A DNA stretch of 64,000 nucleotides, from contig NZ_JAEFCB010000007.1 in assembly GCF_016405905.1 (NCBI RefSeq), positions 107,024-171,023 of the forward strand. Direction: 5' to 3'. The position numbers were made by a program, and so were the translations under genes. Under the pieces are notes generated by a model, which had not been told where the DNA came from, ran no database searches, and saw only the letters and a program-made list of their open reading frames with translations. Within the stretch, counting starts at the first letter, position 1. Each line of letters starts with the position of its first letter. The DNA is from Variovorax sp. IB41. Lineage in GTDB: Bacteria > Pseudomonadota > Gammaproteobacteria > Burkholderiales > Burkholderiaceae_C. Shown here piece after piece: positions 1,000 to 18,857 of this stretch.

Positions 1000-1013
1000 T
1001 TGACCGCAGTCAA
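1000..1013. promoter_or_regulatory. FNR-like box TTGAC-N4-GTCAA upstream of oxlT
   Basis: TTGACCGCAGTCAA is a perfect dyad with 5-base half-sites and a 4-base spacer, the geometry of Crp/Fnr-family operators. Its centre is about 137 bp from the oxlT start codon. At class II spacing downstream lies GACAGT (minus strand), a weak -10 candidate. It matches three other boxes in this locus. Confidence 0.65.
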
Positions 1014-1114
1014 GTTCACACGAATCGCGCTGTGTTGAGACCCCCGTGATATCCCTATGCGGAACACGTGTTGCGTTGAATTTTTTCGGGATGTTTGCGC
1101 GGGTGTTCGGGGCT

Positions 1115-1210
1115 GCACTCGCGCCGACGGTGGGCTCTGTTTCGCGAGTGTCCCCCGGCTTCGCCTCCTCCTTGATTTCGCGAAACAGAGCCCACCATCA
1201 GCGCGAGTGC
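1115..1210. repeat. Palindromic intergenic repeat, family 1, copy A
   Basis: Two arms of about 33 bases (1115-1147 and 1178-1210) are complementary with two mismatches. They flank a core containing GTGTCCCCCGG and CTCCTCCTTGATTT. The core matches copies at 1255-1352 and 14460-14557, while the arms differ in sequence yet still pair, so structure is conserved over sequence. No coding sequence is present. Confidence 0.75.
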
Positions 1211-1254
1211 CTCAGAGCAGTCGTTGATCGGCCGTTCACTAAGAGCGTGCCCAG

Positions 1255-1352
1255 GTGCGCAGGGCATCGGGTGCTTCCCGCAGCGAAATCAAGGAGGAGG
1301 GGCGAAGCCCCGGGGGACATTCGCGGAGGGAAGTACCCGGTGGCCTGTGCAC
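1255..1352. repeat. Palindromic intergenic repeat, family 1, copy B
   Basis: The core AAATCAAGGAGGAGGGGCG followed by CCCCGGGGGACA is flanked by arms beginning GTGCGCAGGGC and ending GGCCTGTGCAC that largely pair. It lies in the opposite orientation to copies A and C. Only 44 bases separate it from copy A. Confidence 0.75.
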
Positions 1353-1408
1353 ACCCCACAGACCTGCACTTGCACCCGCACTCGCACGCCCATTTGCAAG
1401 GAGAAAAA

Positions 1409-1422
1409 TTGACCTAGGTCAA
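1409..1422. promoter_or_regulatory. FNR-like box TTGAC-N4-GTCAA upstream of the 57-aa gene
   Basis: TTGACCTAGGTCAA is fully palindromic, including the spacer. It lies 97 bp before the ATG of the small gene at 1520. No good -10 hexamer is seen at class II spacing, so its mode of action is unclear. Confidence 0.6.
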
Positions 1423-1451
1423 GAAACGCGAAATCAATGTTTGCGTCCGTC

Positions 1452-1465
1452 TAGGGTAAACCCTA
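1452..1465. promoter_or_regulatory. Short palindrome TAGGGT-AA-ACCCTA
   Basis: A 6-base inverted repeat with a 2-base spacer lies between the FNR-like box and the start of the small gene. It could be an operator or part of the core promoter. It is supported only by symmetry and position. Confidence 0.35.
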
Positions 1466-1519
1466 AAATTGCGGGTAATCCCTTCAGTCTTTTTGATTCA
1501 ACTTTTCAGGAGCATTTCC

Positions 1520-1693
1520 ATGAGCAACACCACCCTCGATTCCCGCGCGATCCGCACCGCCCCGCAGTCCACCGCCAACGACGAGGCGCTGCGCGACCTG
1601 GTCGCCGCGATGCCCATCGTGATCATGTACAAGGCCGCTCGCGCCGCACTCGTGCAACACCGCAAGAGCATCCGCAGCGCACTGACCAACTGA
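1520..1693 (+). CDS. 57-aa hypothetical protein with its own FNR-like box
   Basis: Not recognised. The gene starts at an ATG preceded by CAGGAG at normal spacing and ends in a strong terminator 20 bases after its stop. The protein is polar at the N-terminus (Thr, Ser and Asn rich). A short hydrophobic stretch, MPIVIMY, follows, and then a basic helix-like tail rich in Ala, Arg and Lys. It could be a small peripheral membrane or nucleic-acid-associated protein. Its promoter region carries the same FNR-like box as oxlT and oxc, so it is probably co-regulated with oxalate metabolism. A conventional Shine-Dalgarno, own terminator and regulated upstream region argue that it is real. Confidence 0.6.
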   Translation: MSNTTLDSRAIRTAPQSTANDEALRDLVAAMPIVIMYKAARAALVQHRKSIRSALTN

Positions 1694-1713
1694 TCGTGCA
1701 CCGCCCCAAAGAC

Positions 1714-1746
1714 AAAGAGCGCTTCATGCGCTCTTTTGTTTTTTCA
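1714..1746. terminator. Bidirectional intrinsic terminator
   Basis: AAAGAGCGC and GCGCTCTTT form a 9-bp stem with a 5-base loop, followed by TTGTTTTTT on the plus strand and preceded by an A-containing run that serves the minus strand. It separates the convergent 57-aa gene and the LysR gene. Confidence 0.8.
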
Positions 1747-2691
1747 GGCCTCTGATTCGAGTGGCTTGAGCGGTTTGAACGGCACGATCTGCGAGATCAG
1801 CGATGCGCCATCGCTCAGCAGAAAGTCCTTGAAGGCCTGCGCCACCGGCGGCAGGCGCTTGGTGCGGCGATGCACCACGTACCAGTTGAGCATCAGCGGA
1901 AAACCTTCCACATCGAGCACGCAGAGACTGCCGGCCTTCAGCTCCTGGCTGATGGTGTGCGCCGAGACGAAGCTCACGCCCATGCCCGCGATCACCGCCT
2001 GCTTGATCGTCTCAGTGCTGCGGATTTCCATCGCGATGTTGATGTGCTCCAGCTCGCGCCCGAAGCCGTCTTCCATCGAGTGCCAGGTGTCCGAGGCTTT
2101 CTCCCGCACCACGAACGGCTCGCGCATCAAGCGCTTCAATGGAATGCCCGGCACGCCCACCAGCGGATGCGTTGGCGGCGCGACGATCACGTAAGGGTGC
2201 GGTGCAAAGGCCTGGTTCGCGGTGTCCAGATCGGTGGGCGGCCGCACCATGATCGCGAGGTCGGTGAGGTTCTCCGCGATGTGGGTCAGGAGCCCCTCGC
2301 GGTTGTGCACGGTGAAGTTCAGCGTCACGCCGCGGTGTCGGCTCGCGAACTCCACCAGCAGGCGCGGAAAGAAGTAGTCGCCCGCGCTGATGACACCCAC
2401 GTTGAGCTTGCCGCCCGAGACGCCCTTGAACTGCATCATCGCGTTCTCGGCCGCCTCGAACTGCTGGATGATCGCGCGGCTGATCTGCAGCAGCTCGGCG
2501 CCTGCGGGGGTCAGGAAAATCTTCTTGCCGAACTGCTCGAACAGCACGTTGCCCGCGTGCTCCTCGAGCTTGGCGACCTGTGTGGAGACGGCGGGTTGCG
2601 TGAGGTGAAGTTCCTCCGCCGCGCGCGAAAAACTCAGGAGCCGCGCAACCGCCTCGAAGACCTTCAATTGGCGCAGGGTCGCGTGCTTCAT
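1744..2691 (-). CDS. LysR-family transcriptional regulator, CbbR-like
   Basis: 315 residues, normal for the family. The N-terminal winged helix-turn-helix is clear (residues 1-60, RQLKVFEAVARLLSFSRAAE then LTQPAVSTQVAKLE), followed by a periplasmic-binding-protein-like effector domain. The sequence style, including the start MKHATLRQLKVFEAVAR, resembles CbbR-type regulators of carbon fixation or one-carbon genes. It is the last gene before the left intergenic region and reads in the same direction as pyk, from which a palindromic repeat separates it. Target genes cannot be read from the sequence. A role in oxalate, formate or glyoxylate control is possible from context only. Confidence 0.85.
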   Translation of the reverse strand: MKHATLRQLKVFEAVARLLSFSRAAEELHLTQPAVSTQVAKLEEHAGNVLFEQFGKKIFLTPAGAELLQISRAIIQQFEAAENAMMQFKGVSGGKLNVGVISAGDYFFPRLLVEFASRHRGVTLNFTVHNREGLLTHIAENLTDLAIMVRPPTDLDTANQAFAPHPYVIVAPPTHPLVGVPGIPLKRLMREPFVVREKASDTWHSMEDGFGRELEHINIAMEIRSTETIKQAVIAGMGVSFVSAHTISQELKAGSLCVLDVEGFPLMLNWYVVHRRTKRLPPVAQAFKDFLLSDGASLISQIVPFKPLKPLESEA

Positions 2692-2732
2692 CGGGCAGGG
2701 TCGAAAAATCCGGTGAGGTTGAGAACCCCCAA

Positions 2733-2792
2733 CCGTTCGGGTTGAGCTTGTCGAAACCTCGCGCGGCGCTTCGACAGGCTCAGCGTGAACGG
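2733..2792. repeat. Palindromic repeat, family 2, copy 1
   Basis: CCGTTCGGGTTGAGCTTGTC on one side and an inverted GACAGGCTCAGCGTGAACGG on the other form a long imperfect hairpin around a GC-rich loop. A second copy is at 17627-17686. This is a widespread intergenic repeat in Comamonadaceae and Xanthomonadaceae genomes. It lies between pyk and the LysR gene and may act as a transcription end or spacer. Confidence 0.75.
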
Positions 2793-2826
2793 TGGGTGGG
2801 GCAACATTCCTCCCAGGCGATCGACA

Positions 2827-4248
2827 TCAGTTCGGTATCCGCGCGACGTGCAACAGGTTCGTCGTGCCCGACAAGCCGAAGGGCAGCCCCGCCACCACCA
2901 CCACGTCGTCGCCCGCTTTCGCGAAGCCTTCGGCCCGCGCGGTGCGACAAGCGCAGTCGATCATCTCGGCCACGTCGTGCACATCGTCCACGAGCGCCGC
3001 GTGCACGCCCCAGACCATCGCCATGCGGCGCGCGGCGGCCACGTCGGGCGTGAGGCTCAGGATCGGCACCGCGGGCCGCTCGCGCGCGGCGCGCAGGCTC
3101 GTGAAGCCCGAGGAGGTGTAGGTGACAGTGGCGGCCGGCGCGAGCAGCGCGGCCACCTGGCGCATCGAGGCGCACACGGCATCGGCCGTGGTCGAGAGCG
3201 CCGCATCGTGCGTCGCGTCGATGCCGGTGCGGTACGACGGATCGGCCTCCACGCGCGCGACGATGCGGTCCATCATGCCGACCGCTTCGAGCGGGTACTT
3301 GCCCGAGGCCGACTCGGCCGAGAGCATCACCGCATCGACGCCGTCGTAGATGGCCGTGGCCACATCGGACACTTCGGCGCGCGTGGGCACGGGCGCCGCG
3401 ATCATCGATTCGAGCATCTGCGTGGCCACCACCACGGGCTTGCCGTGCTGACGGCATGCGCGCACGATGCGGCGCTGCAATTCGGGCACCTGCTCGGGCG
3501 GCAGCTCCACGCCGAGGTCGCCGCGCGCGACCATGATGCCGTCGGCCAGCGCGACGATGCCGTCCAGGTGCTCGATGGCCGCGGGCTTCTCCAGCTTGGC
3601 CATGATCCATGCGCGCTTGCCGATGATCTCGCGCGCCTCCGTGATGTCCTCGGGCCGCTGCACGAACGAGAGCGCCACCCAGTCCACGCCCATCGAAAGA
3701 CCGAAATCGAGGTCGTCGCGGTCCTTCGGCGTGAGCGGCGAAATCGGCAGCAGCACGCTCGGCACGTTCACGCCCTTGCGGTCGGAGATCGGCCCGCCGA
3801 CGATGACGGTGGTCTCCGCGAAATCGGCGCCGTGGCTCTCCACGCGCAGGCGCAGCTTGCCGTCGTCCAGAAGCAAATCCGTGCCGGCCTGCAGCGCCGC
3901 GAAGATCTCGGGGTGCGGCAACGGCGCGCGGCGGAAGTCGCCGCTCGTCTTCGTGTCCATGTCGAGGCGAAAACGCCGGCCTGCTTCGAGTTGCGCGCGC
4001 CCGCCCTCGAAGGTGCCCAGCCGGAGCTTCGGGCCCTGCAGGTCGAGCAGCACGCCGATAGGCCGGCCGAACTCTTTCTCGAGCCGGCGGATGGCCTCCA
4101 GCCGGCGTGCATGGTCGTGCTGCGAGCCGTGGCTGAAGTTCAGCCGGAACACATCCACGCCACGCTCGAACAGCGCGCGAATGGCTTGCTCGTCGGGGGT
4201 GGCCGGGCCGAGCGTGGCGACGATCTTTGCGCTGCGTGTGCGTCTCAT
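2827..4248 (-). CDS. pyk: Pyruvate kinase
   Basis: Converts phosphoenolpyruvate and ADP to pyruvate and ATP in the cytoplasm. 473 residues, the usual length. The N-terminal barrel begins KIVATLGPAT and has the substrate motif FRLNFSHG. The active-site signature is IMAKLEKPAAIEHLD with the catalytic Lys in AKLEK, and MVARGDLGVELP and LSAESASGKYPLEAV follow. The start is the ATG after which the conserved KIVATLGPA follows at residue 8. It sits 19 bp downstream of a ketopantoate-reductase-like gene and ends the minus-strand run that begins at 8589. In oxalotrophs pyruvate kinase genes often sit with glyoxylate or glycerate pathway genes, which suggests a role feeding C2-derived carbon into pyruvate. 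That role is inferred. Confidence 0.95.
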   Translation of the reverse strand: MRRTRSAKIVATLGPATPDEQAIRALFERGVDVFRLNFSHGSQHDHARRLEAIRRLEKEFGRPIGVLLDLQGPKLRLGTFEGGRAQLEAGRRFRLDMDTKTSGDFRRAPLPHPEIFAALQAGTDLLLDDGKLRLRVESHGADFAETTVIVGGPISDRKGVNVPSVLLPISPLTPKDRDDLDFGLSMGVDWVALSFVQRPEDITEAREIIGKRAWIMAKLEKPAAIEHLDGIVALADGIMVARGDLGVELPPEQVPELQRRIVRACRQHGKPVVVATQMLESMIAAPVPTRAEVSDVATAIYDGVDAVMLSAESASGKYPLEAVGMMDRIVARVEADPSYRTGIDATHDAALSTTADAVCASMRQVAALLAPAATVTYTSSGFTSLRAARERPAVPILSLTPDVAAARRMAMVWGVHAALVDDVHDVAEMIDCACRTARAEGFAKAGDDVVVVAGLPFGLSGTTNLLHVARIPN

Positions 4249-4267
4249 GGTGTGTTGTTCTTTCTTG

Positions 4268-5278
4268 TCATGCCATCTCGCGAAGCCGGACTTGGCCCCG
4301 TTGGTCTTCCATCGTGCGCGCCAACAGTTTCACCAGCGTGTACACGGTGTCGATGTGCGGCGTCGAGGTGTCGGTGAGCCGCGCCAGTTCGACCACCGCG
4401 CCCACCAACGCATCGATCTCCGGCGCACGGCCGGCTTCGACGTCCTGCAGCATCGAGGTCTTGTGCTTGCCGACCTTCTCGGCGCCGGCGATGCGCTTTT
4501 CCAGCGTCACACGGAATTCGATGCCCAGCTTGTGCGCGACGGCCTGGGCCTCGCGCATCATCGCGGTCGCGAGGTCGCGCGAAGGCGGGTACTGGCAGAT
4601 GTCCACCAGCGTCGAATGCGAGAGGCTGCTGATCGGGTTGAAGGTGAGGTTGCCCCAGAGCTTGAGCCAGATCTCGGCGCGGATGTTGTCCAGCACCGGC
4701 GCCTTGAAGCCTGCGCCGGTGAAGCAAGCCGAGACGCGGTTCACGCGCTCGCTCGATGAGCCATCGAGCTCGCCGACCGGGAAGCGATCGCCTTCGATGT
4801 GCTTCACCACACCGGGCGCGATGAGCTCGGACGCGGGATACACCACGCACCCGATCACCCGCTCGGCCGGCACCTTCGCGCTCACCAGCCCTGTGGGGTC
4901 GACGCTGCGCACCGGCGTGCCCGCGAGCGCGCCGCCGTGGTTGTGGAAGTACCAGTACGGAATGCCGTTCTGCATCGTCACGACCATGGTCTCGGGGCCG
5001 AAGAGCTTGGGCACGTCGTTGGCCACGGCCTCGACCTGGTGCGCCTTCATCGCGAGGATGACGATGTCCTGCGGGCCGGCTTCGTCGTAGCTGTCGGTGG
5101 CCTTCACGTTGCGCGCGACCTGCTCCTCGCCCTCGGCCGAGACCAGCTTGAAGCCGTTGGCCCTGATGGCCGAGAGGTTCGCGCCGCGCACGATGAACGT
5201 GACGTCCTCCCCGGCCAGCGCGAGCTTCGCGCCGACCAGGCCGCCGATGGCGCCTGCGCCGATGACTGCAATCTTCAT
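4268..5278 (-). CDS. 2-dehydropantoate 2-reductase family protein
   Basis: An NADPH-dependent reductase of the ketopantoate reductase (PanE/ApbA) family, which reduces 2-oxo acids. 336 residues. The Rossmann motif GAGAIGGLVGAKLA is at residues 7-20, the NADPH phosphate-binding area VRGANL follows, and the C-terminal helical domain has KLWGNLTFNPISSL with the catalytic-type Lys. It lies 61 bp after the FAH-family gene and 19 bp before pyk. It is not next to panB or panC, so pantothenate synthesis is not the obvious role. A different 2-oxo or semialdehyde substrate linked to oxalate or glyoxylate metabolism is possible. Confidence 0.8.
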   Translation of the reverse strand: MKIAVIGAGAIGGLVGAKLALAGEDVTFIVRGANLSAIRANGFKLVSAEGEEQVARNVKATDSYDEAGPQDIVILAMKAHQVEAVANDVPKLFGPETMVVTMQNGIPYWYFHNHGGALAGTPVRSVDPTGLVSAKVPAERVIGCVVYPASELIAPGVVKHIEGDRFPVGELDGSSSERVNRVSACFTGAGFKAPVLDNIRAEIWLKLWGNLTFNPISSLSHSTLVDICQYPPSRDLATAMMREAQAVAHKLGIEFRVTLEKRIAGAEKVGKHKTSMLQDVEAGRAPEIDALVGAVVELARLTDTSTPHIDTVYTLVKLLARTMEDQRGQVRLREMA

Positions 5279-5339
5279 GTCGATCCCCAGTAGTTTTGAA
5301 TGCGTTGTGCGAGGCCGGCAGGGCTGCTTGTTCGTCGTC

Positions 5340-6116
5340 TCAACCGAAGCGGTTGGAGAGCTTGCCGATGCCTTCGATGCCGATCTCCACCTGGCTGCCC
5401 GGCTTCATCGAGCCGACGCCCACCGAGGTGCCGCACAGGATCACGTCGCCCGGGTTGAGCGTCATGTCCTGCGAGATCAGGCTGACCAGTTGCTGCACCG
5501 AAAAGCGCATGTCGCTGATCGGATATTTTTGGCGCTCCTCGCCGTTGAGCACGGTGGTCACGACAAGCGTCGCGGGATCGAGGCCGGTGGCCACCACGGG
5601 ACCCATGGGGCAAAAGGTGTCGAAGCCCTTGGCGCGCACCCACTGGGCGAACGAGGCGTCGCGGTTCAGGATGTCGGCCACCGTCACGTCGTTGGCGCAG
5701 GTGTAGCCGAACACGTGATCGAGCGCGTCGGCCTCGGCCACGGCGGTGGCGGTCTTGCCGATGACGATGCCCAGCTCGCCCTCGAACACCACCTTGCCCT
5801 CGCACAGGGGCTTCCGGATCGCATCGCCGTGCGCCGCGAAGGAGTTGGGCGCCTTCAAGAGATACAGCGGCTCCGCGGGGACCGGCAGGCTCAGCTTGGC
5901 GCCGAGCGCGTGGAAGTTGTTCCACAGCGCGATGACCTTCGTGGGCTCGCTGGGCGTGAGCAGCTTCAGGCCCGCGAGCACGAACACGCGGCCCGTGGGC
6001 TCGCAGCTTCCGTACATGTCGCCCTGGTGCTCGTGCACGGCATCGCCAACGACGGTGCCGAACGCGGCCTTGCCGGCGTCTTCAAAACGGACCCACTGCT
6101 GCGTCTGCTGTTTCAT
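5340..6116 (-). CDS. Fumarylacetoacetate hydrolase family protein
   Basis: A 258-residue FAH-fold enzyme, the family of acylpyruvate hydrolases, oxaloacetate decarboxylases and 2-oxopent-4-enoate hydratases. The metal-binding acidic residues are in FEGELGIVIG and in CANDVTVADILNRD. The family hallmark FCPMGPVV is also present, and CGTSVGVGSM lies near the C-terminus. The predicted start has only a weak ribosome binding site. It lies between sucD and the PanE-like gene. Exact substrate unknown. An oxaloacetate or acylpyruvate substrate would fit a cluster converting C2 to C4 compounds, but that is inference. Confidence 0.82.
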   Translation of the reverse strand: MKQQTQQWVRFEDAGKAAFGTVVGDAVHEHQGDMYGSCEPTGRVFVLAGLKLLTPSEPTKVIALWNNFHALGAKLSLPVPAEPLYLLKAPNSFAAHGDAIRKPLCEGKVVFEGELGIVIGKTATAVAEADALDHVFGYTCANDVTVADILNRDASFAQWVRAKGFDTFCPMGPVVATGLDPATLVVTTVLNGEERQKYPISDMRFSVQQLVSLISQDMTLNPGDVILCGTSVGVGSMKPGSQVEIGIEGIGKLSNRFG

Positions 6117-6167
6117 TTGTTGTGTGCTTTCTTGAAATCTGCGAGGCCATTCGACGGATCGGGGCGA

Positions 6168-7067: not shown

Positions 7068-7068
7068 C

Positions 7069-8241
<1,173 letters not shown>

Positions 8242-8256
8242 GGGAATTACGCCGAT

Positions 8257-8589
8257 TTACGCGCCGATTTCCGCGCCGTGGCTTTCGGCCCAATTGAAAT
8301 AACGCCGGCTTCCGAGGCCTTCGCTCAATTCGCGCTGCTGGTGGATTTCCTTCTTCTGCTCGATCACCTCGGCCAGCGACTTGGCGTCGTAGGCGCGCAA
8401 TAGATGCGGCTGGTGCGTGCTGAGGTAATGGCACACGCGTTCCGGGCCGTCCTGGGTGAGGCGCAGCAATTGGCAATAGGTTTCGCGGTCCCAGTGCCAG
8501 CGCAGGCCCAGCTCGTGGAAGGCGGCGTTGTAGGCGTTGCGCTCCGTCTCGGAGCTCCAGTATTGAATGGGCGCATCATCGATCATCAT
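8257..8589 (-). CDS. 110-aa protein of unknown function in the oxalate cluster
   Basis: Not recognised. 110 residues, soluble and rich in Trp, His, Tyr and Glu, with no membrane segment or signal peptide. Motifs visible are IQYWSSETERNAYN, GLRWHWDRETYCQLL and HQPHLLRAYDAKSLAEVI. The C-terminal half is probably helical (EQKKEIHQQRELSEGLG). The start is the first of two adjacent ATG codons, seven bases after AGGAG. It is the first gene of the minus-strand run sucC-sucD-FAH-panE-pyk, 15 bp from sucC. The first position and tight spacing suggest a function tied to these enzymes, for example as an accessory or small regulatory protein. Confidence 0.75.
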   Translation of the reverse strand: MMIDDAPIQYWSSETERNAYNAAFHELGLRWHWDRETYCQLLRLTQDGPERVCHYLSTHQPHLLRAYDAKSLAEVIEQKKEIHQQRELSEGLGSRRYFNWAESHGAEIGA

Positions 8590-8815: not shown

Positions 8816-10063
8816 TCAAATCACGCGCTCGGTGCGCAGCATGGCAATTTCGTCCACGCCATAGCCCAATTGCCGGAGCACCTCTTCGGTGTGCTCGCCC
8901 AGCAACGGCGCCCGTGTCACCTCGGTCCGGCTGTCGGACATCTTGATGGGGTTGCCCACGGTCAGGTACTTGCCGCGCGTCGGGTGGTCCACCTCGACGA
9001 TGGTGCCGGTCTCGCGCAGCGATTCGTCGGCGGCGATTTCCTTCATCGAGAGAATCGGGCCGCACGGAATGTCGAACTCGTTGAGGATGTCCATGGCCTC
9101 GAACTTCGTCTTGGTCATGGTCCATTGCTCGATGCGCGCGAAGATGGGTTTGAGGTGCAGCAAGCGCGCGGCCGGCGTGGCGTAGGCCTCGTCGGTGATC
9201 CAGCCCTCCTCGCCGATCACCTTGCACACCGCCGGCCACACCGCGCCCTGCGTGATGAAGTAGATGTAGGCGTTCGGGTCGGTCTCCCAGCCCTTGCACT
9301 TCAGGATGGAACCCGGCTGCCCGCCGCCCGATGCGTTGCCCGCGCGCGGCACCGCGTCGCCGAACTTGCCGTCCGGGTACTGCGGGTACTCGTGCATGGT
9401 GCCGGTGCGCTCCAGGCGCTGCTGGTCGCGCATCTTCACGCGGCACAGGTTGAGCACGGCGTCCTGCATCGGCGCGAGCACCTGCTGGCCGCGCCCGGTG
9501 TTGTTGCGCTGGTAGAGCGCCGCGACGATGCCCAGCGCCAGGTGCAGCCCGGTGCCGCTGTCGCCGATCTGCGCGCCGGTGACCACCGGTGGTCCGTCCT
9601 CGAAGCCGGTGGTCGATGCGGCGCCGCCGGCGCATTGCGCCACGTTCTCGTAGACCTTGCAGTGCTCGTACTTGCCGGGGCCGAAGCCCTTGACCGAGGC
9701 GACGATCATCCGCGGGTTGAGCTTCTGGATGTGCGCCCAGGTGATGCCCATGCGGTCCAGCGCGCCGGGCGCGAAGTTCTCCACCAGCACGTCGCAGGTC
9801 TTGATGAGCGTATCGAGAACCTGCTTGCCCTTGGGGTTCTTGGTGTCCAGCGTGATCGAGCGCTTGTTGTGGTTCAGCATCGTGAAATAGAGGCTGTCCA
9901 CACCGGGAATGTCGCGCAGCTGGGCGCGCGTCGCGTCGCCTTCGCCGGCGCGTTCGACCTTGATCACGTCGGCACCGAACCATGCCAGGAGCTGCGTGCA
10001 GGTGGGGCCGGACTGCACATGCGTGAAGTCCAGGATGCGGACGCCTTCGAGTGCCTTGCTCAT
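8816..10063 (-). CDS. frc: Formyl-CoA:oxalate CoA-transferase, first copy
   Basis: A class III (CaiB/BaiF) CoA-transferase moving CoA from formyl-CoA to oxalate to make oxalyl-CoA, the substrate of Oxc. 415 residues. It opens [19 protein letters not shown]. The catalytic-type Asp is in QIGDSGTG (about residue 168) and the glycine loop SGGGQPG is present. The residue aligned with Trp48 of Oxalobacter formyl-CoA transferase is Gln (in [10 protein letters not shown]), as in the second copy. It lies 16 bp after the PAS gene. Sequence divergence from the second copy suggests a different CoA donor or substrate range. Confidence 0.88.
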
Positions 10064-10079
10064 CGTGTGTCTCCTTGTC

Positions 10080-10514
10080 TTATTTGTTCGTCGCGGCTTC
10101 GACTTCTACCAGACGGGCGCGCAATTTGCGCTCCTCGGCGAAGCGGGCGGTTTCGTCGCGCACGATGGCGACGATGCCCGAAACCGTTTGATCGGGGGCG
10201 AACAGCATGGAGACCGTGAAGGCGATGGAAAGGGTATGCCCGTCTTTGTGCAGAGCGGGCACGCGCAGCACGTCGGCACCGTATTTGGTGACCGCCGTTT
10301 CCATCGTCTTGTTGTAGCCATCCCAATGCCGCTGGCGTTGCCGCATGGAGATGATGATGTCCAGCGACTGCCCGAGCGCTTCGGCTTCGGTAAAGCCGAA
10401 GATGCGCTCGGCAGCCTTGTTCCACAGCGTGATCGCACCCTTGGCATCGCAGACCATGATGGCGTCGCCGGCACCGGCAACGAGTTGGTTCAGATCGACG
10501 GTCGATGACGACAA
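10080..10514 (-). CDS. Stand-alone PAS-domain protein
   Basis: 144 residues made almost wholly of one PAS domain. [21 protein letters not shown] begins the fold at about residue 21, and [17 protein letters not shown] and [16 protein letters not shown] form the later strands and the C-terminal helix. No output domain (kinase, HTH or GGDEF) is attached. It is sandwiched between the two formyl-CoA transferase genes, in the same direction. It may sense a ligand or redox state and act through a partner, or bind a pathway CoA intermediate. Nothing in the sequence decides this. The codon style matches its neighbours. Confidence 0.85.
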
Positions 10515-10560
10515 GGTGTGCTCCCGCTTCTTTCTTTCAGTCCGTCTTTTCGCGACGGCC

Positions 10561-11817
10561 TCAGACGGCCTTGGCTTCGCGCAGGTTGCTGATCTGCTCT
10601 TTCGAGTAGCCCAGCTCGGCCAGCACTTCCTCGGTGTGCTCGCCCAGGAGCGGCGATCCGGTGATCTCGGGCTTGAGGTCCGAGAACTTGATCGGGCTGC
10701 CCACGGTGAAGTAGCTGCCGCGCTCCTTGTGCTGCACTTCCACGATCGAGCCGCTGGCGCGCAGCGACTCGTCGTTCAAGAGTTCCTTCATCGTCAGCAC
10801 CGGCGCGCACGGGATGTCGAACTTGCGCAGGATGTCGACCGCCTCGAACTTGGTCTTCTCGGCCAGCCAGCCCTCGATGGTCGCAAAGATGTCGGTGATG
10901 TGCGGCTGGCGCGCCTTGGCGGTCATGTAGTCGGGGTCGGTCTTCCACTCGGGCTTGCCGATGGCGTCGCAGATCGGCGCCCAGGCGTGGCCCTGCACGG
11001 TGAAGTAGATGTAGGCGTTCGGGTCGGTCTCCCAGCCCTTGCACTTGAGCACCCAGCCCGGCTGGCCGCCGCCGCCGGCATTGCCGCCGCGCGGCACCAC
11101 GTCGCTGAACGTGCCGTGCGGGTACTGCGGGTATTCCTCCAGATAACCGAGGCGGTCCAGGCGCTGCTGGTCGCGCATCTTCACGCGGCAGAGGTTGAGC
11201 ACCGCGTCCTGCATCGAGCAGGCCACGCGCTGGCCCTTGCCGGTCTGCTCGCGGCCGATGATGGCCGTGAGAATCCCGATGGCCAGGTGCATGCCGGTGT
11301 TGCTGTCGCCCAGGGCCGCGGCGCTCACGGTCGGCGGGCCGTCCCAGAAGCCGGTGGTCGAGGCGGCGCCGCCGGCGCACTGCGCAACGTTCTCGTAGAC
11401 CTTCAGGTCTTCGTAGTGGTGGCCGTCGCTGAAGCCCTTGACCGAGGCGACGATCATCTTGGGGTTCAGTTCCTGGATGCGCTCCCAGGTGAAGCCCATG
11501 CGGTCGAGCGCGCCGGGGCCGAAGTTCTCCACCAGCACATCCGATTCCTTGATCAGCTTCTCCAGTACCCGCTTGCCCTCGGGCTGCTTGGTGTCCAGCG
11601 TGAGCGAGCGCTTGTTGCTGTTGAGCATGGTGAAGTAGAGCGCGTCCACATCGGGAATGTCGCGCAGCTGCGAGCGCGTGACGTCGCCGGCGCCGGGGCG
11701 CTCGACCTTGATGACGTCGGCGCCGAACCAGGCCAGCATCTGCGTGCAGGCCGGGCCCGCCTGCACGTGGGTGAAGTCGATGATCTTGATGCCGTTGAGG
11801 GGTTTGTTGTCGCTCAT
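10561..11817 (-). CDS. frc: Formyl-CoA:oxalate CoA-transferase, second copy
   Basis: 418 residues, CaiB/BaiF class III CoA-transferase. It shares with Oxalobacter Frc the opening [19 protein letters not shown], the active-site segment [11 protein letters not shown] with the catalytic Asp at about residue 171, and the flexible glycine loop [19 protein letters not shown] that guards the active site. It is the closer of the two copies to authentic Frc and lies 31 bp after oxc, so it is probably the main oxalate-activating enzyme. The position equivalent to Trp48 is Gln. Its product oxalyl-CoA goes to Oxc, and formyl-CoA returns to it. Confidence 0.92.
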
Positions 11818-11848
11818 GTGATATCTCCTGGGATGCTGAAAGTTGGAA

Positions 11849-13672: not shown

Positions 13673-13744
13673 GTCTCTCCTTCTGCTTGGGTGAATGGCC
13701 GAGGCCCGAGCCGGGACTATGATTCGGGGGCATGCTTTCGGGCG

Positions 13745-13758
13745 TTGACCTCGGTCAA
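13745..13758. promoter_or_regulatory. FNR-like box between oxc and the Crp/Fnr regulator
   Basis: TTGACCTCGGTCAA lies in the divergent intergenic region. Its centre is 33 bases from the centre of CATAGT (minus strand, 13716-13721), the spacing expected for class II activation of oxc at -41.5. For the divergent regulator the box lies about 67 bp before the chosen ATG. Confidence 0.7.
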
Positions 13759-13824
13759 CTTTCCGGAAAACGGCACCGGCCAGATGAACCAGAAGTTGTT
13801 GCGAATTCGAGCAAGACGGGACCC

Positions 13825-14433
13825 ATGACGTTGTTGGAAAACCACCCGGAAAAAAACATCATTCGCGCGCAGCTCCGGCAGAACGTCCTGCTCAAGGACC
13901 TGAGCGAGAGCGACCGCGCCGAACTGGAAGCCCACCTCGTGATCGTGGACGGCAACAAGGGCGATTTCCTGTTGCACCAGGGGGTGCGCGAGATGGAGCA
14001 ATACTTCATCCTCGACGGCATCCTCAAACGCGTGGTGAGCAACCCCGAAGGCAAGGAAATGATCCTTCGCTTCGCCGACGAGCACGACATGGAAACGAGC
14101 TACGCGGCGCTGCGGCTGGGCACGCCGACGCCCTACGGCATCGTGTGCGTCACCAAGGCCCGCGTGGCGAGCCTGCCGCTGAAGGAATGGATCACCTTTT
14201 TGAACCGGCACCCCGAGACGAAGGAGCTGTTCGAGTACCTGGTGATGAAGGGGATGAGCGAGATCATGGCGCACACGATCACGCTGCATCTCTTGGATGC
14301 GCCGGGGCGCGTGCACCGGTTCATGCGCAAGCACCCGGAGCTGGAAGACCGGATTCCTAGCAAGGAGCTGGCTTCGTATCTGAACCTCTCCGCAGAAACC
14401 CTTAGTCGGCTGCGCAAGCGCGGGAAGATCTAG
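13825..14433 (+). CDS. Compact Crp/Fnr-family regulator, probable oxalate regulator
   Basis: 202 residues from the ATG at 13825. The longer frame from 13732 is rejected because it would translate the FNR-like box. An N-terminal cyclic-nucleotide-binding-type barrel (about 20-125) is followed by a dimer helix and a C-terminal HTH ([19 protein letters not shown]). The recognition helix has the E..SR triad at 191, 194 and 195, which in FNR proteins reads TTGA-type half-sites. Only one Cys (about 108) is present, so no FNR iron-sulfur cluster is likely, and the cAMP-binding consensus is absent. The protein ends right after the recognition helix with little wing. It is divergent from oxc and flanked by a matching box, so it is the likely regulator. 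Its effector is unknown. Confidence 0.85.
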
Positions 14434-14459
14434 GTTTTTTGCGGGGTCGTTCGGGGCGG

Positions 14460-14557
14460 GTGCACAGGCCACTGGGTGCTCCCCTCCGCGAATGTCCCCC
14501 GGGGCTTCGCCCCTCCTCCTTGATTTCGCTGCGGGGAGCACCCGGTGCCCTGCGCAC
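14460..14557. repeat. Palindromic intergenic repeat, family 1, copy C
   Basis: The core GAATGTCCCCCGGGG then CTCCTCCTTGATTT is flanked by arms GTGCACAGGCC and GCCCTGCGCAC with nearby pairing segments GGGTGCTCCCC and GGGGAGCACCC. It lies between the convergent regulator and kinase-BON genes and could end transcription. It matches copies A and B 13 kb away. Confidence 0.78.
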
Positions 14558-14593
14558 TCGGGCACGCCGCTGGTTTGTTGCGGCTGCCTGAAG

Positions 14594-15430
14594 TCAGGTC
14601 TGCTTGGCTGATGCGAAACGGCGCGACGTGGCCATCAGGCGCAACTGGTTGTGCACGCCGGTGACGCCGGTCACGGCGGCCGCCACCGCTTCGGTCTGCG
14701 CCCGTTCTTCCGAGTTCAAGACGATCCCGCGCAGGATCACTTCGCCCTGGTTCGCATCGACCGTCACGCGGATGTCGCTCGTCTCCACCTGCTCCTTCAA
14801 CGCCGCTTTCACGCGCGCCTGCAGCGCCATGTTCTTGAGCAGCGCGCGCGAGGCGGGCGTTTCCGCGAACTCGGGGCGCGCGACCAGCTGGCGGATCTGC
14901 TCGACGCAGCTGTCGACGGTCACGCGGTCGGTGTTGAGCACCAGGTCGTAGAGCACCGGGTCGCCCCAGGTCACACCGAATTGCGCGTGCATGCGCGCCG
15001 CGTGGGCCTGGTCGCTGCGGCGGATCTCGGCTTCGGCGAACGCGGCGTCGTCGGTTTCCAGGTCGCCCATGAGCCACTCGACGCGCTTGTCGAGCGAGCG
15101 CGTGATGCGCACGCACACCACGTGCGGCACGGGCCGCAAGAGGCACGTTGCGCCCCATCCGCGCAGCACCACGTTGCCGCGGTCGGCGAGCGCGAAGAGC
15201 TCGTCGGCCGTGTAGAGCGCGACGCTGCGCTGGTCGGTCTTCAGGCGCTCCAGCAAGCCGGCCTTGCCGCCGCGCAGGCGCCCGATGAGGCTCTTGGAGA
15301 CCTGCATCTTCTCGGCCACGTGGTCGATGACCTCGTGGCGCATCACGGCGAGCGAGAGCGTCTCCGCGAGCTTGACCGACACGTCCTTGGCGAGGGAACC
15401 CATCTCCTGGGTCAGTGCGATGACTGGCAT
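14594..15430 (-). CDS. Cytidylate-kinase-like domain fused to a BON domain
   Basis: 278 residues. The N-terminal region (about 1-185) resembles the cytidylate-kinase-like family: ALTQEMGSLAKDVSVKLAE in the P-loop position (GSLAK rather than the usual GSGGR), YDLVLNTDRVTVDSCVEQI near the end, and DQAHAARMHAQFG between. The C-terminal part (about 190-265) is a BON domain with DIRVTVDANQGEVILRGIV and VTGVHNQLRLM. The protein looks cytoplasmic; BON domains are usually in periplasmic or lipid-binding proteins, so this fusion is unusual. It is the last gene of the tctC-tctB-tctA run, 22 bp from tctA. True kinase activity is uncertain because the P-loop is altered. Confidence 0.72.
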   Translation of the reverse strand: MPVIALTQEMGSLAKDVSVKLAETLSLAVMRHEVIDHVAEKMQVSKSLIGRLRGGKAGLLERLKTDQRSVALYTADELFALADRGNVVLRGWGATCLLRPVPHVVCVRITRSLDKRVEWLMGDLETDDAAFAEAEIRRSDQAHAARMHAQFGVTWGDPVLYDLVLNTDRVTVDSCVEQIRQLVARPEFAETPASRALLKNMALQARVKAALKEQVETSDIRVTVDANQGEVILRGIVLNSEERAQTEAVAAAVTGVTGVHNQLRLMATSRRFASAKQT

Positions 15431-15452
15431 GTGTGTGCTCCTTTTTTTCCGC

Positions 15453-16985
15453 TCAATCCACCGGACGCTCGACGGCGAACTCGTCGGGCTTCTTGGGCGG
15501 CTTGATGAGGGCGATGCCCTTGGAGATCAGCGGCCAGAACAGGAGCACCAGGGCCAGCGTCGTGATGCCGCCCACCAGCGGGTTGGAGAACATGATCATC
15601 ACGTCGCCTTGCGAGACCAGCATGGCCTGGCGGAACGAGTCTTCGGCCTTGTCCCCGAGCACCAGTGCGAGCACCAGCGGCGCGAGCGGGAAGTCCAGCT
15701 TCTTGAACAGGTAGCCGATGACGCCGAAGCCGAGCATGAACCAGATGTCGAGCATCGCGTTGTGCACGGTGTAGGCACCGATCGCGCAGATCACGATGAT
15801 CACCGGCGCGATGATCGAGAACGGAATGCGCAGGATCGAGGCGAACAGAGGCACTGTGCTCAGCACCACGATCAGGCCCACGATGTTGCCCAGGTACATG
15901 CTGGCGATGAGGCCCCAGACGAAGTCCTTCTGCTCGGTGAACAGCAGCGGCCCGGGCTGCAGGCCCCAGATCAGGAGGCCGCCCAGCAGCACCGCGGCGG
16001 TCGGCGAACCGGGGATGCCCAGCGCCAGCATCGGCAGCAGCGCGCTGGTGCCCGCGGCGTGCGCCGCGGTCTCGGGGGCGACGACGCCTTCCATCTGGCC
16101 GGTGCCGAACTTGGAGCCCTTCTTGGACATCTTCTTCGCAAGGCCGTAGGCCATGAACGAAGCCGGCGTGGCGCCGCCGGGCGTGATGCCCATCCAGATG
16201 CCGATGAGCGAGCTGCGCAGCGACGTGACCCAGTACTGCGGCAGCTGCTTCCACGTTTGCAGCACCACCTTCGGATCGATCTTGGCGCTCTTGCCGGAGA
16301 ACTTCAGGCCCTCTTCCATCGACAGCAGGATCTCGCCGATGCCGAAGAGGCCGATCACCGCGATCAGGAAGTCGAAGCCGCGCATCAGCTCGGGCTGGCC
16401 GAAGGTCAGGCGCAGCTGGCCCGTGACCGTGTCCATGCCGACCGAGGCGAGCGCGAAGCCCAGCGCCATCGAGGCGAGGATCTTGAACGGCGACCCCTTG
16501 CCCATGCCCACGAAGCTGCAGAAGGTGAGCAGGTACACCGCGAAGAATTCGGGCGAGCCGAACTTGAGCGCGAACTTGGCCACCAGCGGCGCGAGGAAAG
16601 TGATCATCACCACCGCGATGAAGGCGCCCACGAACGACGAGGTGAAGGCCGTGGTGAGCGCGGCGCCCGCGTTGCCCTGCTGGGCCATCGGGTAGCCGTC
16701 GAAGGTTGTCGCAACCGACCATGGTTCGCCGGGAATGTTGAACAGGATCGAGGTGATGGCCCCGCCGAACAACGCACCCCAGTAGATGCACGACAACATG
16801 ATGATGGCCGAGGTCGGCGACATCGTGAACGTGAGGGGCAGCAAAATCGCCACCCCGTTGGCGCCGCCCAGCCCCGGCAGCACGCCGATGAGCACGCCAA
16901 GAATGATCCCCACGAACATCAACGCGATGTTCATCGGGGTCAGGATCACTGCAAAGCCCTGCATCAGGGCGCTGATTTCGTCCAT
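15453..16985 (-). CDS. tctA: TTT transporter large membrane subunit TctA
   Basis: 510 residues, the usual length for the 12-helix channel subunit of tripartite tricarboxylate transporters in the inner membrane. Family motifs are present: LIGVLPGLGGANGVAILLPLTF near residue 30, GALFGGAITSILFNIPGEP, and the second-half repeat ALGIPGSPTAAVLLGGLLIWGLQPGP. It lies 19 bp downstream of tctB and is followed by the kinase-BON gene. Substrate cannot be told from the sequence; a carboxylate is expected. The FNR-like box upstream of tctC suggests a link with oxalate-related acids. Confidence 0.94.
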   Translation of the reverse strand: MDEISALMQGFAVILTPMNIALMFVGIILGVLIGVLPGLGGANGVAILLPLTFTMSPTSAIIMLSCIYWGALFGGAITSILFNIPGEPWSVATTFDGYPMAQQGNAGAALTTAFTSSFVGAFIAVVMITFLAPLVAKFALKFGSPEFFAVYLLTFCSFVGMGKGSPFKILASMALGFALASVGMDTVTGQLRLTFGQPELMRGFDFLIAVIGLFGIGEILLSMEEGLKFSGKSAKIDPKVVLQTWKQLPQYWVTSLRSSLIGIWMGITPGGATPASFMAYGLAKKMSKKGSKFGTGQMEGVVAPETAAHAAGTSALLPMLALGIPGSPTAAVLLGGLLIWGLQPGPLLFTEQKDFVWGLIASMYLGNIVGLIVVLSTVPLFASILRIPFSIIAPVIIVICAIGAYTVHNAMLDIWFMLGFGVIGYLFKKLDFPLAPLVLALVLGDKAEDSFRQAMLVSQGDVMIMFSNPLVGGITTLALVLLFWPLISKGIALIKPPKKPDEFAVERPVD

Positions 16986-17004
16986 TTCGCTGTGCTCCGT
17001 GAGT

Positions 17005-17526
17005 TCAGTAGCCGAGGAACCGGAGGGGGTCGAGCGCGCCTTTGAAAAGCGGCACCTTGAACCACACCTCGAACATGCAGAAGAAGACCGTGTTCACGGC
17101 CAGCGCGGCGATCACGCTCTTGCCCCACGAGTACTTGCCCAGCACGATCATGAAAAGAGCGATGTAGATCGCCGATGCGACATACAGCCCCACGAAGGTG
17201 ATCGCCAGCACGTACACGGTGGCCGGCACCAGCACCGAGAGCACGCGTTTGAGCTGCACCGAATCGACGAACACCTCGGTGTTGCGGTTCTTGCCGAGCA
17301 GTGCCTGGTACAGGATGCCCGCGCCCGAGATCGTGATGATCACGCCGATGAAGAACGGGAAGTAGCCCGACCCCGGCCCGTCGCTCGTCCAGCCCGCGCC
17401 GAGCTTGCGGGCCTCGAACACCACCACCAGTCCGATGATCAGCAGCAGCGCCGCCACCACCGCCTCGACCACGTAGGTGGCGACGCCCGTACGCGCCGCC
17501 CCATCGGAAATTTCTTCGTGCTCCAT
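17005..17526 (-). CDS. tctB: TTT transporter small membrane subunit TctB
   Basis: 173 residues with four hydrophobic segments, as in TctB: AVVAALLLIIGLVVVFEA, YFPFFIGVIITISGAGIL, LVPATVYVLAITFVGLYVA and VIAALAVNTVFFCMFEVWF. The N-terminus is acidic and polar. It lies between tctC and tctA. A 190-bp gap with a palindromic repeat separates it from tctC, which may lower expression of the membrane subunits relative to the binding protein. Confidence 0.88.
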   Translation of the reverse strand: MEHEEISDGAARTGVATYVVEAVVAALLLIIGLVVVFEARKLGAGWTSDGPGSGYFPFFIGVIITISGAGILYQALLGKNRNTEVFVDSVQLKRVLSVLVPATVYVLAITFVGLYVASAIYIALFMIVLGKYSWGKSVIAALAVNTVFFCMFEVWFKVPLFKGALDPLRFLGY

Positions 17527-17626
17527 GGAGCCCCCGTCGTATTTGTGTGTGAGAGAAAGAAGGACAGACAGCGCGTTGATCGACGCACGCTGGCAGGCCA
17601 GAGCCCGTTTGCGCCGATGGTCTCAA

Positions 17627-17686
17627 CCCGTTCACGCTGAGCCTGTCGAAGCGCCGCGCGAGGCTTCGACGAGCTCGGCCCGAACG
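17627..17686. repeat. Palindromic repeat, family 2, copy 2
   Basis: CCGTTCACGCTGAGCCTGTC and an inverted copy ending GGCCCGAACGG form an imperfect hairpin around a GC-rich loop. It lies between tctC and tctB inside the operon. It matches the copy at 2733-2792. Confidence 0.75.
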
Positions 17687-17715
17687 GTCGTCAACCGATC
17701 GGCCGCAGATCCGGC

Positions 17716-18744
17716 CTACTTGTTGCTGGCCAGGAAGCCCGCGTCGGACATCAGCGTGCGGTGCGTCGCCTCGGCCGTGGTGAGCCAGTCGGCGAAGGGC
17801 TTGCCGGTCATGAAGGTCGGGTTGAAGGCACCCTTCTCCATGTATTCCTTCCACTCCGGCGTGGCGGCCACCTTGGTCAGGAGGTCCGTGTAGAACTTCA
17901 GCTGCTCGGGCGTGACGCCCGCGGGCATGAAGATGCCGCGCAACATCGTGTACTTGGTGGGCACGCCCGCTTCCTTGCAGGTGGGCACGTCGTTCCACGA
18001 TTGCGTGTCGGTCACCTTGGCCTTGAAGGGCATGCGCTCGTCGTCGAACACGCACAGCGCGCGCAGCTTGCCGGCGCGCCATTGCGCGACCGCCTCGATC
18101 GGGTTGTTGACCGTGGAGTGCACGTGGCCGCCCACCAGCTGCACCGCCACCTCGCCGCCGCCCTTGAAGGGCACGTAGATGAACTTGGTGCCCGTGGCTT
18201 TCTCGAGCGCGACGGTGATGATCTGGTCTTCCTGCTTGGAGCCGGTGCCGGCCATCTTGAACTTGTTGGGGCCCGCGGCCTTGGTGGCCGCGATGTATTC
18301 GCCGGCGGTCTTGTAGGGCGCATCGACGTTGGTCCACAGCACGAACTGGTCGAGCGCGAGCATCGCGACGGGCGTCATGTCCTTCCAGTTGAAGGGCACG
18401 CCGGTGGCCATGGGCGTGGTGAACAGGTTGGACAGCGAGATGATGATCTTGTGCGGATCGCCCTTGGCCTCCTTCACCGCCAGGAAGCCCTCGGCGCCCG
18501 CGCCGCCCGACTTGTTGACCACGATGAGCGGCTCTTTCATGAGCTTGTACTTGATGACGATGCCCTGCAGCAGCCGCCCCATCTGGTCGGCGCCGCCGCC
18601 GGTGCCGGCGGGGATCACGAACTCCACCGGCTTGGTGGGTTCCCAGGCGAACGCAGGAGTGGCTGCGGCCAGTGCCAGCACGGCCGCGCCAATGGCTTTC
18701 GCAGGCCAGCCGCGGGCGCGCGAAGCGATGTTCTTCATCGTCAT
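17716..18744 (-). CDS. tctC: TTT periplasmic solute-binding protein TctC
   Basis: 342 residues with a Sec signal peptide (about 1-33, AIGAAVLALAAATPAFA then WEPTKPVEF). The binding-protein fold has the family motifs VIPAGTGGGADQMGR, VVNKSGGAGAEGFLAVK and FIYVPFKGGGEVAVQL. A GGAG lies seven bases before the ATG. It is the first gene of the operon tctC-tctB-tctA-kinase. Its upstream region carries an FNR-like box at 18844-18857. It should capture a carboxylate in the periplasm and deliver it to TctAB. Confidence 0.93.
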   Translation of the reverse strand: MTMKNIASRARGWPAKAIGAAVLALAAATPAFAWEPTKPVEFVIPAGTGGGADQMGRLLQGIVIKYKLMKEPLIVVNKSGGAGAEGFLAVKEAKGDPHKIIISLSNLFTTPMATGVPFNWKDMTPVAMLALDQFVLWTNVDAPYKTAGEYIAATKAAGPNKFKMAGTGSKQEDQIITVALEKATGTKFIYVPFKGGGEVAVQLVGGHVHSTVNNPIEAVAQWRAGKLRALCVFDDERMPFKAKVTDTQSWNDVPTCKEAGVPTKYTMLRGIFMPAGVTPEQLKFYTDLLTKVAATPEWKEYMEKGAFNPTFMTGKPFADWLTTAEATHRTLMSDAGFLASNK

Positions 18745-18843
18745 GTTTGTCTCCAGTCGGTGTAGGGTGCGCCCTTTGTTATTGTTGGATCTGAGCGGAG
18801 ATACGAACAGGGCGGATGTTGCGCGCAGGCGGGAAGCGCCAAC

Positions 18844-18857
18844 TTGACCGAGGTCAA
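18844..18857. promoter_or_regulatory. FNR-like box upstream of the TTT operon
   Basis: TTGACCGAGGTCAA is the fourth copy of the dyad in this locus. Its centre is about 106 bp before the tctC start. A weak -10-like CAACAT (minus strand) lies at class II spacing. Confidence 0.65.

What the first reader, a model, noticed from the sequence alone, without database searches (positions are those of the whole stretch)
1000..18857. Four identical-geometry FNR-like boxes define a probable oxalate regulon
TTGAC-N4-GTCAA occurs at 1000-1013 (oxlT), 1409-1422 (57-aa gene), 13745-13758 (oxc/regulator) and 18844-18857 (tctC). Each is in an intergenic space before oxalate genes or the TTT operon, and I noticed no other copy in the remaining 45 kb. 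The oxc site has CATAGT at class II spacing. A Crp/Fnr protein with an E..SR recognition triad is divergent from oxc. The TTT transporter and a 57-aa protein would then be new members of an oxalate regulon.
Basis: partly seen in the sequence, partly recalled or inferred. Interest (0 to 1): 0.8.

Follow-up and report, generated by a model that had tools for sequence, protein, structure and literature searches.

The report
Dedicated Crp/Fnr-type oxalate regulon
A small Crp/Fnr-type regulator beside the oxalate-degradation genes of a Variovorax-like bacterium appears to control oxalate uptake, breakdown and formate oxidation through one DNA box that recurs beside the same genes in many related bacteria and thins out where the regulator is missing.

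Summary
TTGAC-N4-GTCAA occurs exactly four times in the window, where 0.04 are expected. The genome holds 11 copies, five within 20.6 kb. The fifth, outside the window, precedes formate dehydrogenase genes. In 109 loci around relatives of the 202-aa protein, TTGAY-N4-RTCAA lies upstream of oxc in 92 of 94 and of tctC in 61 of 61, but of frc1, PAS and tctA in 0 of 69, 53 and 61. It is the top inverted repeat found de novo. Five genomes with oxc but no regulator have no box near oxc; of five testable genomes with the regulator on another contig, three keep it at oxc. In the genus sample, genomes with the regulator average 3.5 boxes, those without 0.6. Among 14 cNMP-domain proteins of the genome the regulator is the only one with an FNR-type E..SR helix; orthologs share no cysteine, so an oxygen-sensing FNR is unlikely. 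An unlinked AAA ATPase gene is a further candidate target. Binding, activation and effector are untested. Ten paper searches listed no report of this regulator.

The parts
1000..1013 (.). box TTGACCGCAGTCAA upstream of oxlT (oxlT runs leftwards, L012:11556-12947); -10-like GACAGT (3 of 6) at 977-972 on the minus strand
   Evidence: box beside oxlT in the Variovorax loci and upstream of 9 of 15 oxlT homologues in the wider set
1409..1422 (.). box TTGACCTAGGTCAA upstream of the 57-aa gene
   Evidence: box of its own in 13 of 21 orthologs, one box shared with oxlT in 8
1453..1464 (.). second palindrome AGGGTAAACCCT in the 57-aa promoter, 44 bp start to start from the box
   Evidence: at that distance in 12 of the 13 loci with a box of their own; also near the gene in L174, L178, L179, L181 (some with one changed base); binder unknown
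1520..1693 (+). 57-aa small protein, core LR-x-L-x-A-x-MPIVI-x-x-KAARAA
   Evidence: orthologs in 21 of 61 genomes of the genus sample, one of them with an internal stop; core median dN/dS 0.40 over 189 pairs
1744..2691 (-). LysR-type regulator next to the 57-aa gene; role untested
   Evidence: PF00126, PF03466; box upstream in 0 of 14 homologues
8816..10063 (-). second formyl-CoA transferase homologue (frc2)
   Evidence: TIGR03253 719.8 bits, cut-off 504.2
10080..10514 (-). small PAS-domain protein between the two frc genes
   Evidence: PF00989
10561..11817 (-). frc, formyl-CoA transferase
   Evidence: TIGR03253 735.8 bits
11849..13672 (-). oxc, oxalyl-CoA decarboxylase
   Evidence: TIGR03254 1001.9 bits, cut-off 739.4; closest solved chain 7ayg
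13716..13721 (-). -10-like CATAGT of oxc, 23 nt from the box
   Evidence: gaps of 22-23 prevail in 42 oxc or TPP-enzyme promoters
13745..13758 (.). box TTGACCTCGGTCAA between oxc and the regulator gene
   Evidence: TTGAY-N4-RTCAA upstream of oxc in 92 of 94 and of the regulator in 100 of 106
13825..14433 (+). 202-aa Crp/Fnr-type regulator (start inferred from orthologs; the open frame begins at 13732)
   Evidence: PF00027; alignments A1, A2; recognition helix aligns with DNR and CRP
14594..15430 (-). cytidylate-kinase-like/BON protein after tctA; not a separate target (box in 0 of 54)
15453..16985 (-). tctA, large membrane subunit of the TTT transporter
   Evidence: PF01970
17005..17526 (-). 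small membrane subunit (tctB), assigned by position only
   Evidence: open frame between tctA and tctC; not scanned against a family library
17716..18744 (-). tctC, periplasmic binding protein of the TTT transporter
   Evidence: PF03401
18844..18857 (.). box TTGACCGAGGTCAA upstream of tctC; -10-like CAACAT (3 of 6) at 18821-18816 on the minus strand
   Evidence: box upstream of 61 of 61 tctC genes examined

Best explanation
The 202-aa Crp/Fnr-type protein is a dedicated regulator of oxalate use. As a dimer it binds the palindrome TTGACC-N2-GGTCAA (with some variation) centred near -41.5 and activates transcription class-II style at the oxc-frc operon, oxlT, the TTT transporter, the 57-aa gene and, in this genome, the nearby formate dehydrogenase operon; an unlinked AAA ATPase gene is a probable further target. 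Shown here: the sites, their conservation and spacing, and the co-occurrence of regulator and sites. Inferred: binding by this protein, activation rather than repression, and an effector from the pathway (oxalate, oxalyl-CoA or formyl-CoA) rather than oxygen.
For: 5 of 11 genome copies in 20.6 kb. In 109 loci: oxc 92 of 94, an alternative TPP enzyme 10 of 10, tctC 61 of 61, oxlT 9 of 15, against frc1 0 of 69, frc2 3 of 70, PAS 0 of 53, kinase-like 0 of 54, tctA 0 of 61; five control palindromes gave one hit in all (at a tctA). Dereplicated to 44 regulators: oxc 34 of 36, tctC 12 of 12. De novo the top of 1024 x 13 inverted repeats, in 33 of 43 promoters; the first clearly different repeat has 4; -10-like hexamers mostly 22-23 nt on. 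Regulator in 54, oxc in 51, both in 46 of 300 genomes, Fisher p 5e-40. oxc without regulator: 0 of 5 have a box in about 18 kb; regulator on another contig: 3 of 5 testable genomes have the box at oxc. Genus: 35 genomes with the regulator average 3.46 sites, 26 without 0.58. Only FNR-type E..SR among 14 cNMP-domain proteins. The box at fdsG is in 13 of 30 loci, all 13 from genomes with the regulator and 12 of them showing oxlT or the second LysR gene of the cluster in the same 3.4 kb.
Against: No binding or expression data. L142 has regulator and oxc but no box; of five testable genomes with the regulator on another contig, G180 and G052 have no box upstream of oxc. Six of 15 oxlT homologues lack it, and 14 genomes with the regulator have an fdsG homologue without it. 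Five other exact genome copies have no evident oxalate link, though they score lower (16.9-19.0 against 20.4-23.1 bits). Of 26 genus genomes without the regulator, seven have one site and three have two or three. In this genome the -10-like hexamers of fdsG, oxlT and tctC match only 3 of 6. No shuffled control was run for the spacing. The genomes are related, so the p-values overstate independence.
Confidence: 0.86

Rival explanations
1. The boxes are ordinary oxygen-responsive FNR/ANR/DNR sites, and the oxalate genes belong to a global low-oxygen regulon run by another protein.
For: The half-site and 4-bp spacer are those of FNR-type sites (recalled); the recognition helix of the regulator aligns with that of DNR (3dkw).
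Against: No other FNR-type E..SR helix among the 14 cNMP-domain proteins found in this genome (a divergent paralog could be missed). Site counts fall to about the control level in genus members lacking this regulator. 30 orthologs share no cysteine and 18 have none.
Confidence: 0.06
2. The regulator binds the boxes but acts mainly as a repressor that oxalate or a CoA ester relieves.
For: One palindrome per promoter as a rule; box also upstream of the regulator's own gene in 100 of 106.
Against: The gap of 22-23 nt to a -10-like hexamer fits class II activation; weak -10 hexamers at several targets suggest need of an activator.
Confidence: 0.13
3. The box only serves the regulator gene and its divergent neighbour; the other copies are chance or inheritance.
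For: Most copies lie beside the regulator gene in related genomes; two of five unlinked oxc genes lack it.
Against: In L043, L049 and L051 the box is upstream of oxc and not of the regulator; tctC 61 of 61; three oxc genes on other contigs carry it.
Confidence: 0.02

Closest known systems
DNR / FNR / ANR subfamilies of Crp/Fnr regulators
   Same: E..SR recognition helix (aligned with DNR); TTGAC/T-N4-A/GTCAA sites and class II promoters (recalled for the known families)
   Different: No shared cysteine, protein ends 7 residues after the Arg of the triad, targets are one catabolic pathway
Local metabolite-responsive Crp/Fnr regulators such as CprK (recalled, not tested)
   Same: A Crp/Fnr protein dedicated to one catabolic pathway with FNR-like boxes
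   Different: Other pathway; orthology not tested; effector unknown here
3dn7, a cyclic-nucleotide-binding-type regulatory protein in the PDB
   Same: Best PDB match (E 6e-14); the alignment runs almost to the chain end, as here
   Different: Distant; function not given by the call
oxc loci without the regulator (five genomes of the order sample)
   Same: oxc, with frc homologues nearby in all five and oxlT in two
   Different: No 202-aa regulator match and no box in 17.6-18 kb

Membership tests
Crp/Fnr superfamily | N-terminal cNMP-binding beta-roll | tested here: met
   PF00027 E 2e-9, 37.7 bits, cut-off 27.5
Crp/Fnr superfamily | C-terminal helix-turn-helix | tested here: met
   Profile aligns through the recognition helices of CRP and DNR; but no Pfam helix-turn-helix model reached E 0.001
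Crp/Fnr superfamily | Beta-hairpin wing after the helix-turn-helix | tested here: not met
   7 residues after the Arg of E..SR here, 7-13 in 30 orthologs, too few for a hairpin of the usual length (judged from recall)
FNR-type DNA specificity | E..SR triad with TTGA half-sites | tested here: inconclusive
   E191, S194, R195 invariant and TTGAC spacer 4 is the top de novo repeat; binding itself not testable here
Oxygen-sensing FNR | Cysteine ligands of a 4Fe-4S cluster | tested here: not met
   One cysteine in this protein; none shared by 30 orthologs, 18 of which have none
DNR (heme/NO sensor) | Heme binding | not testable with these tools
   Needs spectroscopy
cAMP-CRP | Arg before the recognition Glu (R-E) and TGTGA sites (recalled) | tested here: not met
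   Ala precedes Glu here; L018 and L021 have R-E
Class II activator promoters | Site centred near -41.5 | tested here: inconclusive
   -10-like hexamers at gaps 22-23 in 39 of 50 placements over 42 promoters, ties counted more than once, no shuffled control; no transcription start measured

The most novel reading that the evidence does not exclude
An undescribed subfamily of wingless, cysteine-free-in-most Crp/Fnr activators senses an oxalate-pathway metabolite and defines an oxalate-to-formate regulon across Burkholderiales relatives. Its box also marks a second, non-orthologous oxalyl-CoA decarboxylase: in 7 of 8 sampled genomes that have the regulator but no TIGR03254 oxc, a 2-hydroxyacyl-CoA-lyase-like TPP enzyme with an frc homologue takes the oxc position behind the box.
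Probability: 0.4. Interest if true: 0.75.

Novelty: new member of a known kind. Interest (0 to 1): 0.6.

Why it matters
Oxalate is common in soil and around plant roots and fungi, yet the papers I could search described no regulator of the oxc-frc pathway of this kind. One regulator and one box would say when such bacteria degrade oxalate, point to the TTT transporter as an oxalate-linked uptake system, tie formate oxidation to it, and give leads on a 57-aa protein, an AAA ATPase and an unassigned TPP enzyme. All of it can be tested in a laboratory Variovorax.

Tried and rejected
Chance was rejected. A global FNR regulon was considered and held unlikely: no second FNR-type helix among the 14 cNMP-domain proteins found, and site counts follow the regulator. 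One-mismatch sites as extra targets: no enrichment genome-wide, 74 against a control of 78. The other five exact genome copies (two in a TetR/SDR gap, one each near a relaxase, a metallophosphatase and a methyltransferase gene) were set aside for lower matrix scores and unrelated neighbours. Sites in genomes without the regulator: the four examined (G322, G355, two of three in G323) are each spanned by an open frame of 100 aa or more, but so are two of the AAA-gene sites, and in a G+C-rich genome that says little. The structure model of the regulator has mean pLDDT 70.9 with residues 51-55, 70-91 and 99-111 under 50; it was not used and no fold search was run.

Literature: ten accepted searches, seen as listings and abstract starts; three lists were cut (20 of 47, 12 of 13, 20 of 96). 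Six papers were searched for passages only: PMC12927642, PMC3886118, PMC9476978 ('regulator' 0 times in each) and PMC4764995, PMC5209427, PMC5987411. PMC5209427 suggests a LysR regulator for a gene cluster with a putative oxalate-acting cupin; [quoted passage not shown] The library lacks most subscription journals, so absence there is weak.

Full report
What was checked. The four boxes are real and are the only exact matches in the window. The genome, 6.87 Mb in 49 contigs, has 11 exact copies against 2 for the reversed pattern. The window is C47:107024-171023, and five copies lie between C47:105306 and 125880. The extra one sits outside the window between a LysR gene and a leftward run of FdsG-, NuoF/FdsB- and molybdopterin FdsA-like genes, that is an NAD-type formate dehydrogenase (FdsG by its match). 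Formate is what the Frc-Oxc pathway yields. By regulator identity the nearest named genomes are Variovorax boronicumulans CC172 and V. paradoxus MEDvA23 (100%).

The protein. The 202-aa product has a cNMP-binding domain. In NCBIfam its only match is a weak one to an encapsulin model far under the cut-off. With a profile of 28 orthologs the best solved matches are 3dn7, then CRP and DNR; its S-A-E-T-L-S-R aligns with Q-P-E-T-F-S-R of DNR. It ends 7 residues after that Arg, and 30 orthologs end 7-13 residues after it, so the usual wing seems absent. The 30 orthologs share no cysteine and 18 have none. Of 14 cNMP-domain proteins found in the genome it is the only one with this triad; L018 and L021 carry Arg before Glu, as CRP does, and the others have different helices or none. 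A divergent paralog without a recognisable cNMP domain could be missed.

Conservation. In 300 genomes of the order the regulator has a match at E 1e-20 in 54. Thirty stretches were fetched, this genome's own among them; 28 hold TTGAY-N4-RTCAA, and the two without (L055, L056) come from genomes whose oxc is on another contig. A genome-collection scan found 540 relatives, of which the best 80 were kept. For the 29 foreign stretches and these 80, upstream regions of at most 350 bp gave: oxc 92 of 94 (80 exact TTGAC/GTCAA), an alternative TPP enzyme 10 of 10, tctC 61 of 61, oxlT 9 of 15, regulator 100 of 106; frc1 0 of 69, frc2 3 of 70, PAS 0 of 53, kinase-like 0 of 54, tctA 0 of 61, FdsA-like genes (internal to their operons) 0 of 14, fdsG 0 of 1, the two LysR genes 0 of 14 and 0 of 4. 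Genes under a set identity, with less than 250 bp of room, or whose match began after residue 60 were dropped before counting. Of the two oxc misses, L040 has its box just beyond 350 bp (found with 400 bp) and L142 has none. With one regulator per 88% identity group (44) the counts are oxc 34 of 36, TPP enzyme 7 of 7, tctC 12 of 12, oxlT 5 of 8.

Without assuming the motif, all 1024 half-sites with spacers 0-12 were counted in 43 oxc or TPP-enzyme promoters: TTGAC with spacer 4 came first with 33. TGACC spacer 2 (27), GACCG spacer 0 (10) and the NTTGA spacer 6 forms are the same palindrome shifted; the first clearly different one has 4. For tctC it also led, 8 of 12. In 42 promoters aligned on the box there are conserved columns 22-28 nt beyond it, and xAxxxT hexamers with at least 3 of 6 matches fall at gaps 22-23 in 39 of 50 placements (ties counted more than once; no shuffled control). 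That is class II spacing, as recalled for FNR; no start site was measured.

Natural experiments. Among the 300 genomes 54 have the regulator, 51 have oxc by TIGR03254 over its cut-off, and 46 have both. Five have oxc and no regulator match; none has a single TTGAY-N4-RTCAA in 17.6-18 kb around oxc, although two of them have oxlT there and one has tct genes. Six of the 46 have the regulator and oxc on different contigs. Three keep a box just upstream of oxc (G002, G008, G057), two do not (G180; G052, whose one site lies at the far end of oxc), and in G144 oxc meets the contig end and cannot be judged. In the genus sample of 61, TTGACYNNRGTCAA occurs 3.46 times on average, at least once, in the 35 genomes with the regulator, and 0.58 times in the 26 without (16 with none, 7 with one, 3 with two or three); the reversed control gives 0.80 and 0.42. 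Shared ancestry makes the p-values too good.

Targets beyond the finding. fds: of 31 close fdsG matches in the genus the best 30 were fetched; 13 have the box upstream, all from genomes with the regulator, and 12 of the 13 show oxlT or the second LysR gene of the cluster in the same stretch. The other 17 have none directly upstream; 14 of these come from genomes that do have the regulator, and one (L194) lies in the oxalate cluster behind the first LysR gene. The operon thus seems to gain the box, mostly, where it joins the cluster; linkage was judged within 3.4 kb only. In G007 a box precedes a TPP-enzyme gene followed by fdsGBA. AAA ATPase: the unlinked copy at C11:1103689 scores 22.1 bits against 20.4-23.1 for the five clustered copies and 16.9-19.0 for the other five, with a matrix of 116 rows (each box in both orientations) from other genera. 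The gene has matches in 8 of 61 genus genomes, all 8 with the regulator (chance 0.008), and 7 of 8 have a box about 52 bp before the matched start; the eighth match is partial and its stretch has almost nothing on one side.

57-aa gene. Matches in 21 of 61 genus genomes, in 20 of them between oxlT and the LysR gene; the stretch of the other (L166) is short and shows only the LysR gene. Most are 46-58 aa long, with the core LR-x-L-x-A-x-MPIVI-x-x-KAARAA; one has an internal stop. Thirteen have a box of their own and eight share one with oxlT. The palindrome AGGGTAAACCCT follows 44 bp on in 12 of the 13, and appears near the gene in four of the eight others. Membership is likely, but a second regulator probably acts there too.

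How it probably works. A dimer reads the two half-sites and contacts RNA polymerase at the downstream -10, turning on uptake (TTT, OxlT), activation and decarboxylation (Frc, Oxc) and, where linked, formate oxidation. The signal is unlikely to be oxygen through an iron-sulphur cluster. Oxalate, oxalyl-CoA or formyl-CoA are natural candidates, since the box precedes both oxc and the alternative TPP enzyme; this is inference. Confidence is 0.86 for regulator and regulon, about 0.75 for activation, low for any one effector.

Novelty. Ten paper searches, three with cut lists, listed no report of this regulator; only listings, abstract starts and passages of six papers were seen (calls named in Tried and rejected). 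It is a new member of a known kind, a Crp/Fnr regulon, with an unusual short regulator.

Noticed in passing
L120:4586-6280 (-); L212:705-2399 and 17114-18808 (+): A TPP enzyme about 23-29% identical to Oxc stands in the oxc position behind the box, with an frc homologue, in 7 of 8 sampled genomes that have the regulator but no TIGR03254 oxc. In the PDB it is closest to 2-hydroxyacyl-CoA lyase 7pt3 (4e-80), then to 8vza, named lyase/synthase or oxalyl-CoA decarboxylase (3e-73), and farther from Oxc 7ayg (3e-52); no listed NCBIfam equivalog reaches its cut-off, and the Oxc stretch GDYEEMDQ is not kept. Candidate second oxalyl-CoA decarboxylase or a formyl-CoA-releasing lyase.
   Followed up: partly
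1453-1464: Perfect palindrome AGGGTAAACCCT in the 57-aa promoter, the only match in the window at up to one mismatch, kept in most orthologous promoters and, as AGGGTTAACCCT, in a Rhizobacter locus (L127:234).
   Followed up: partly
L129:12180-12773, L130:13813-14415, L147:4201-4755: A second regulator paralog beside oxlT, 48% and 46% identical in Caldimonas and Methylibium, 35% in L147.
   Followed up: no
G000:C16:31086-31121 (L015:6087-6122): Two tandem TTGACA-type palindromes 8 bp apart at the divergent start of a TetR-family gene and a short-chain dehydrogenase gene, perhaps that repressor's own operators.
   Followed up: no
8816-11817: Two full-length frc homologues flank a small PAS-domain gene on one strand, an arrangement seen in many of the 80 relatives; why two are kept is unclear.
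   Followed up: no
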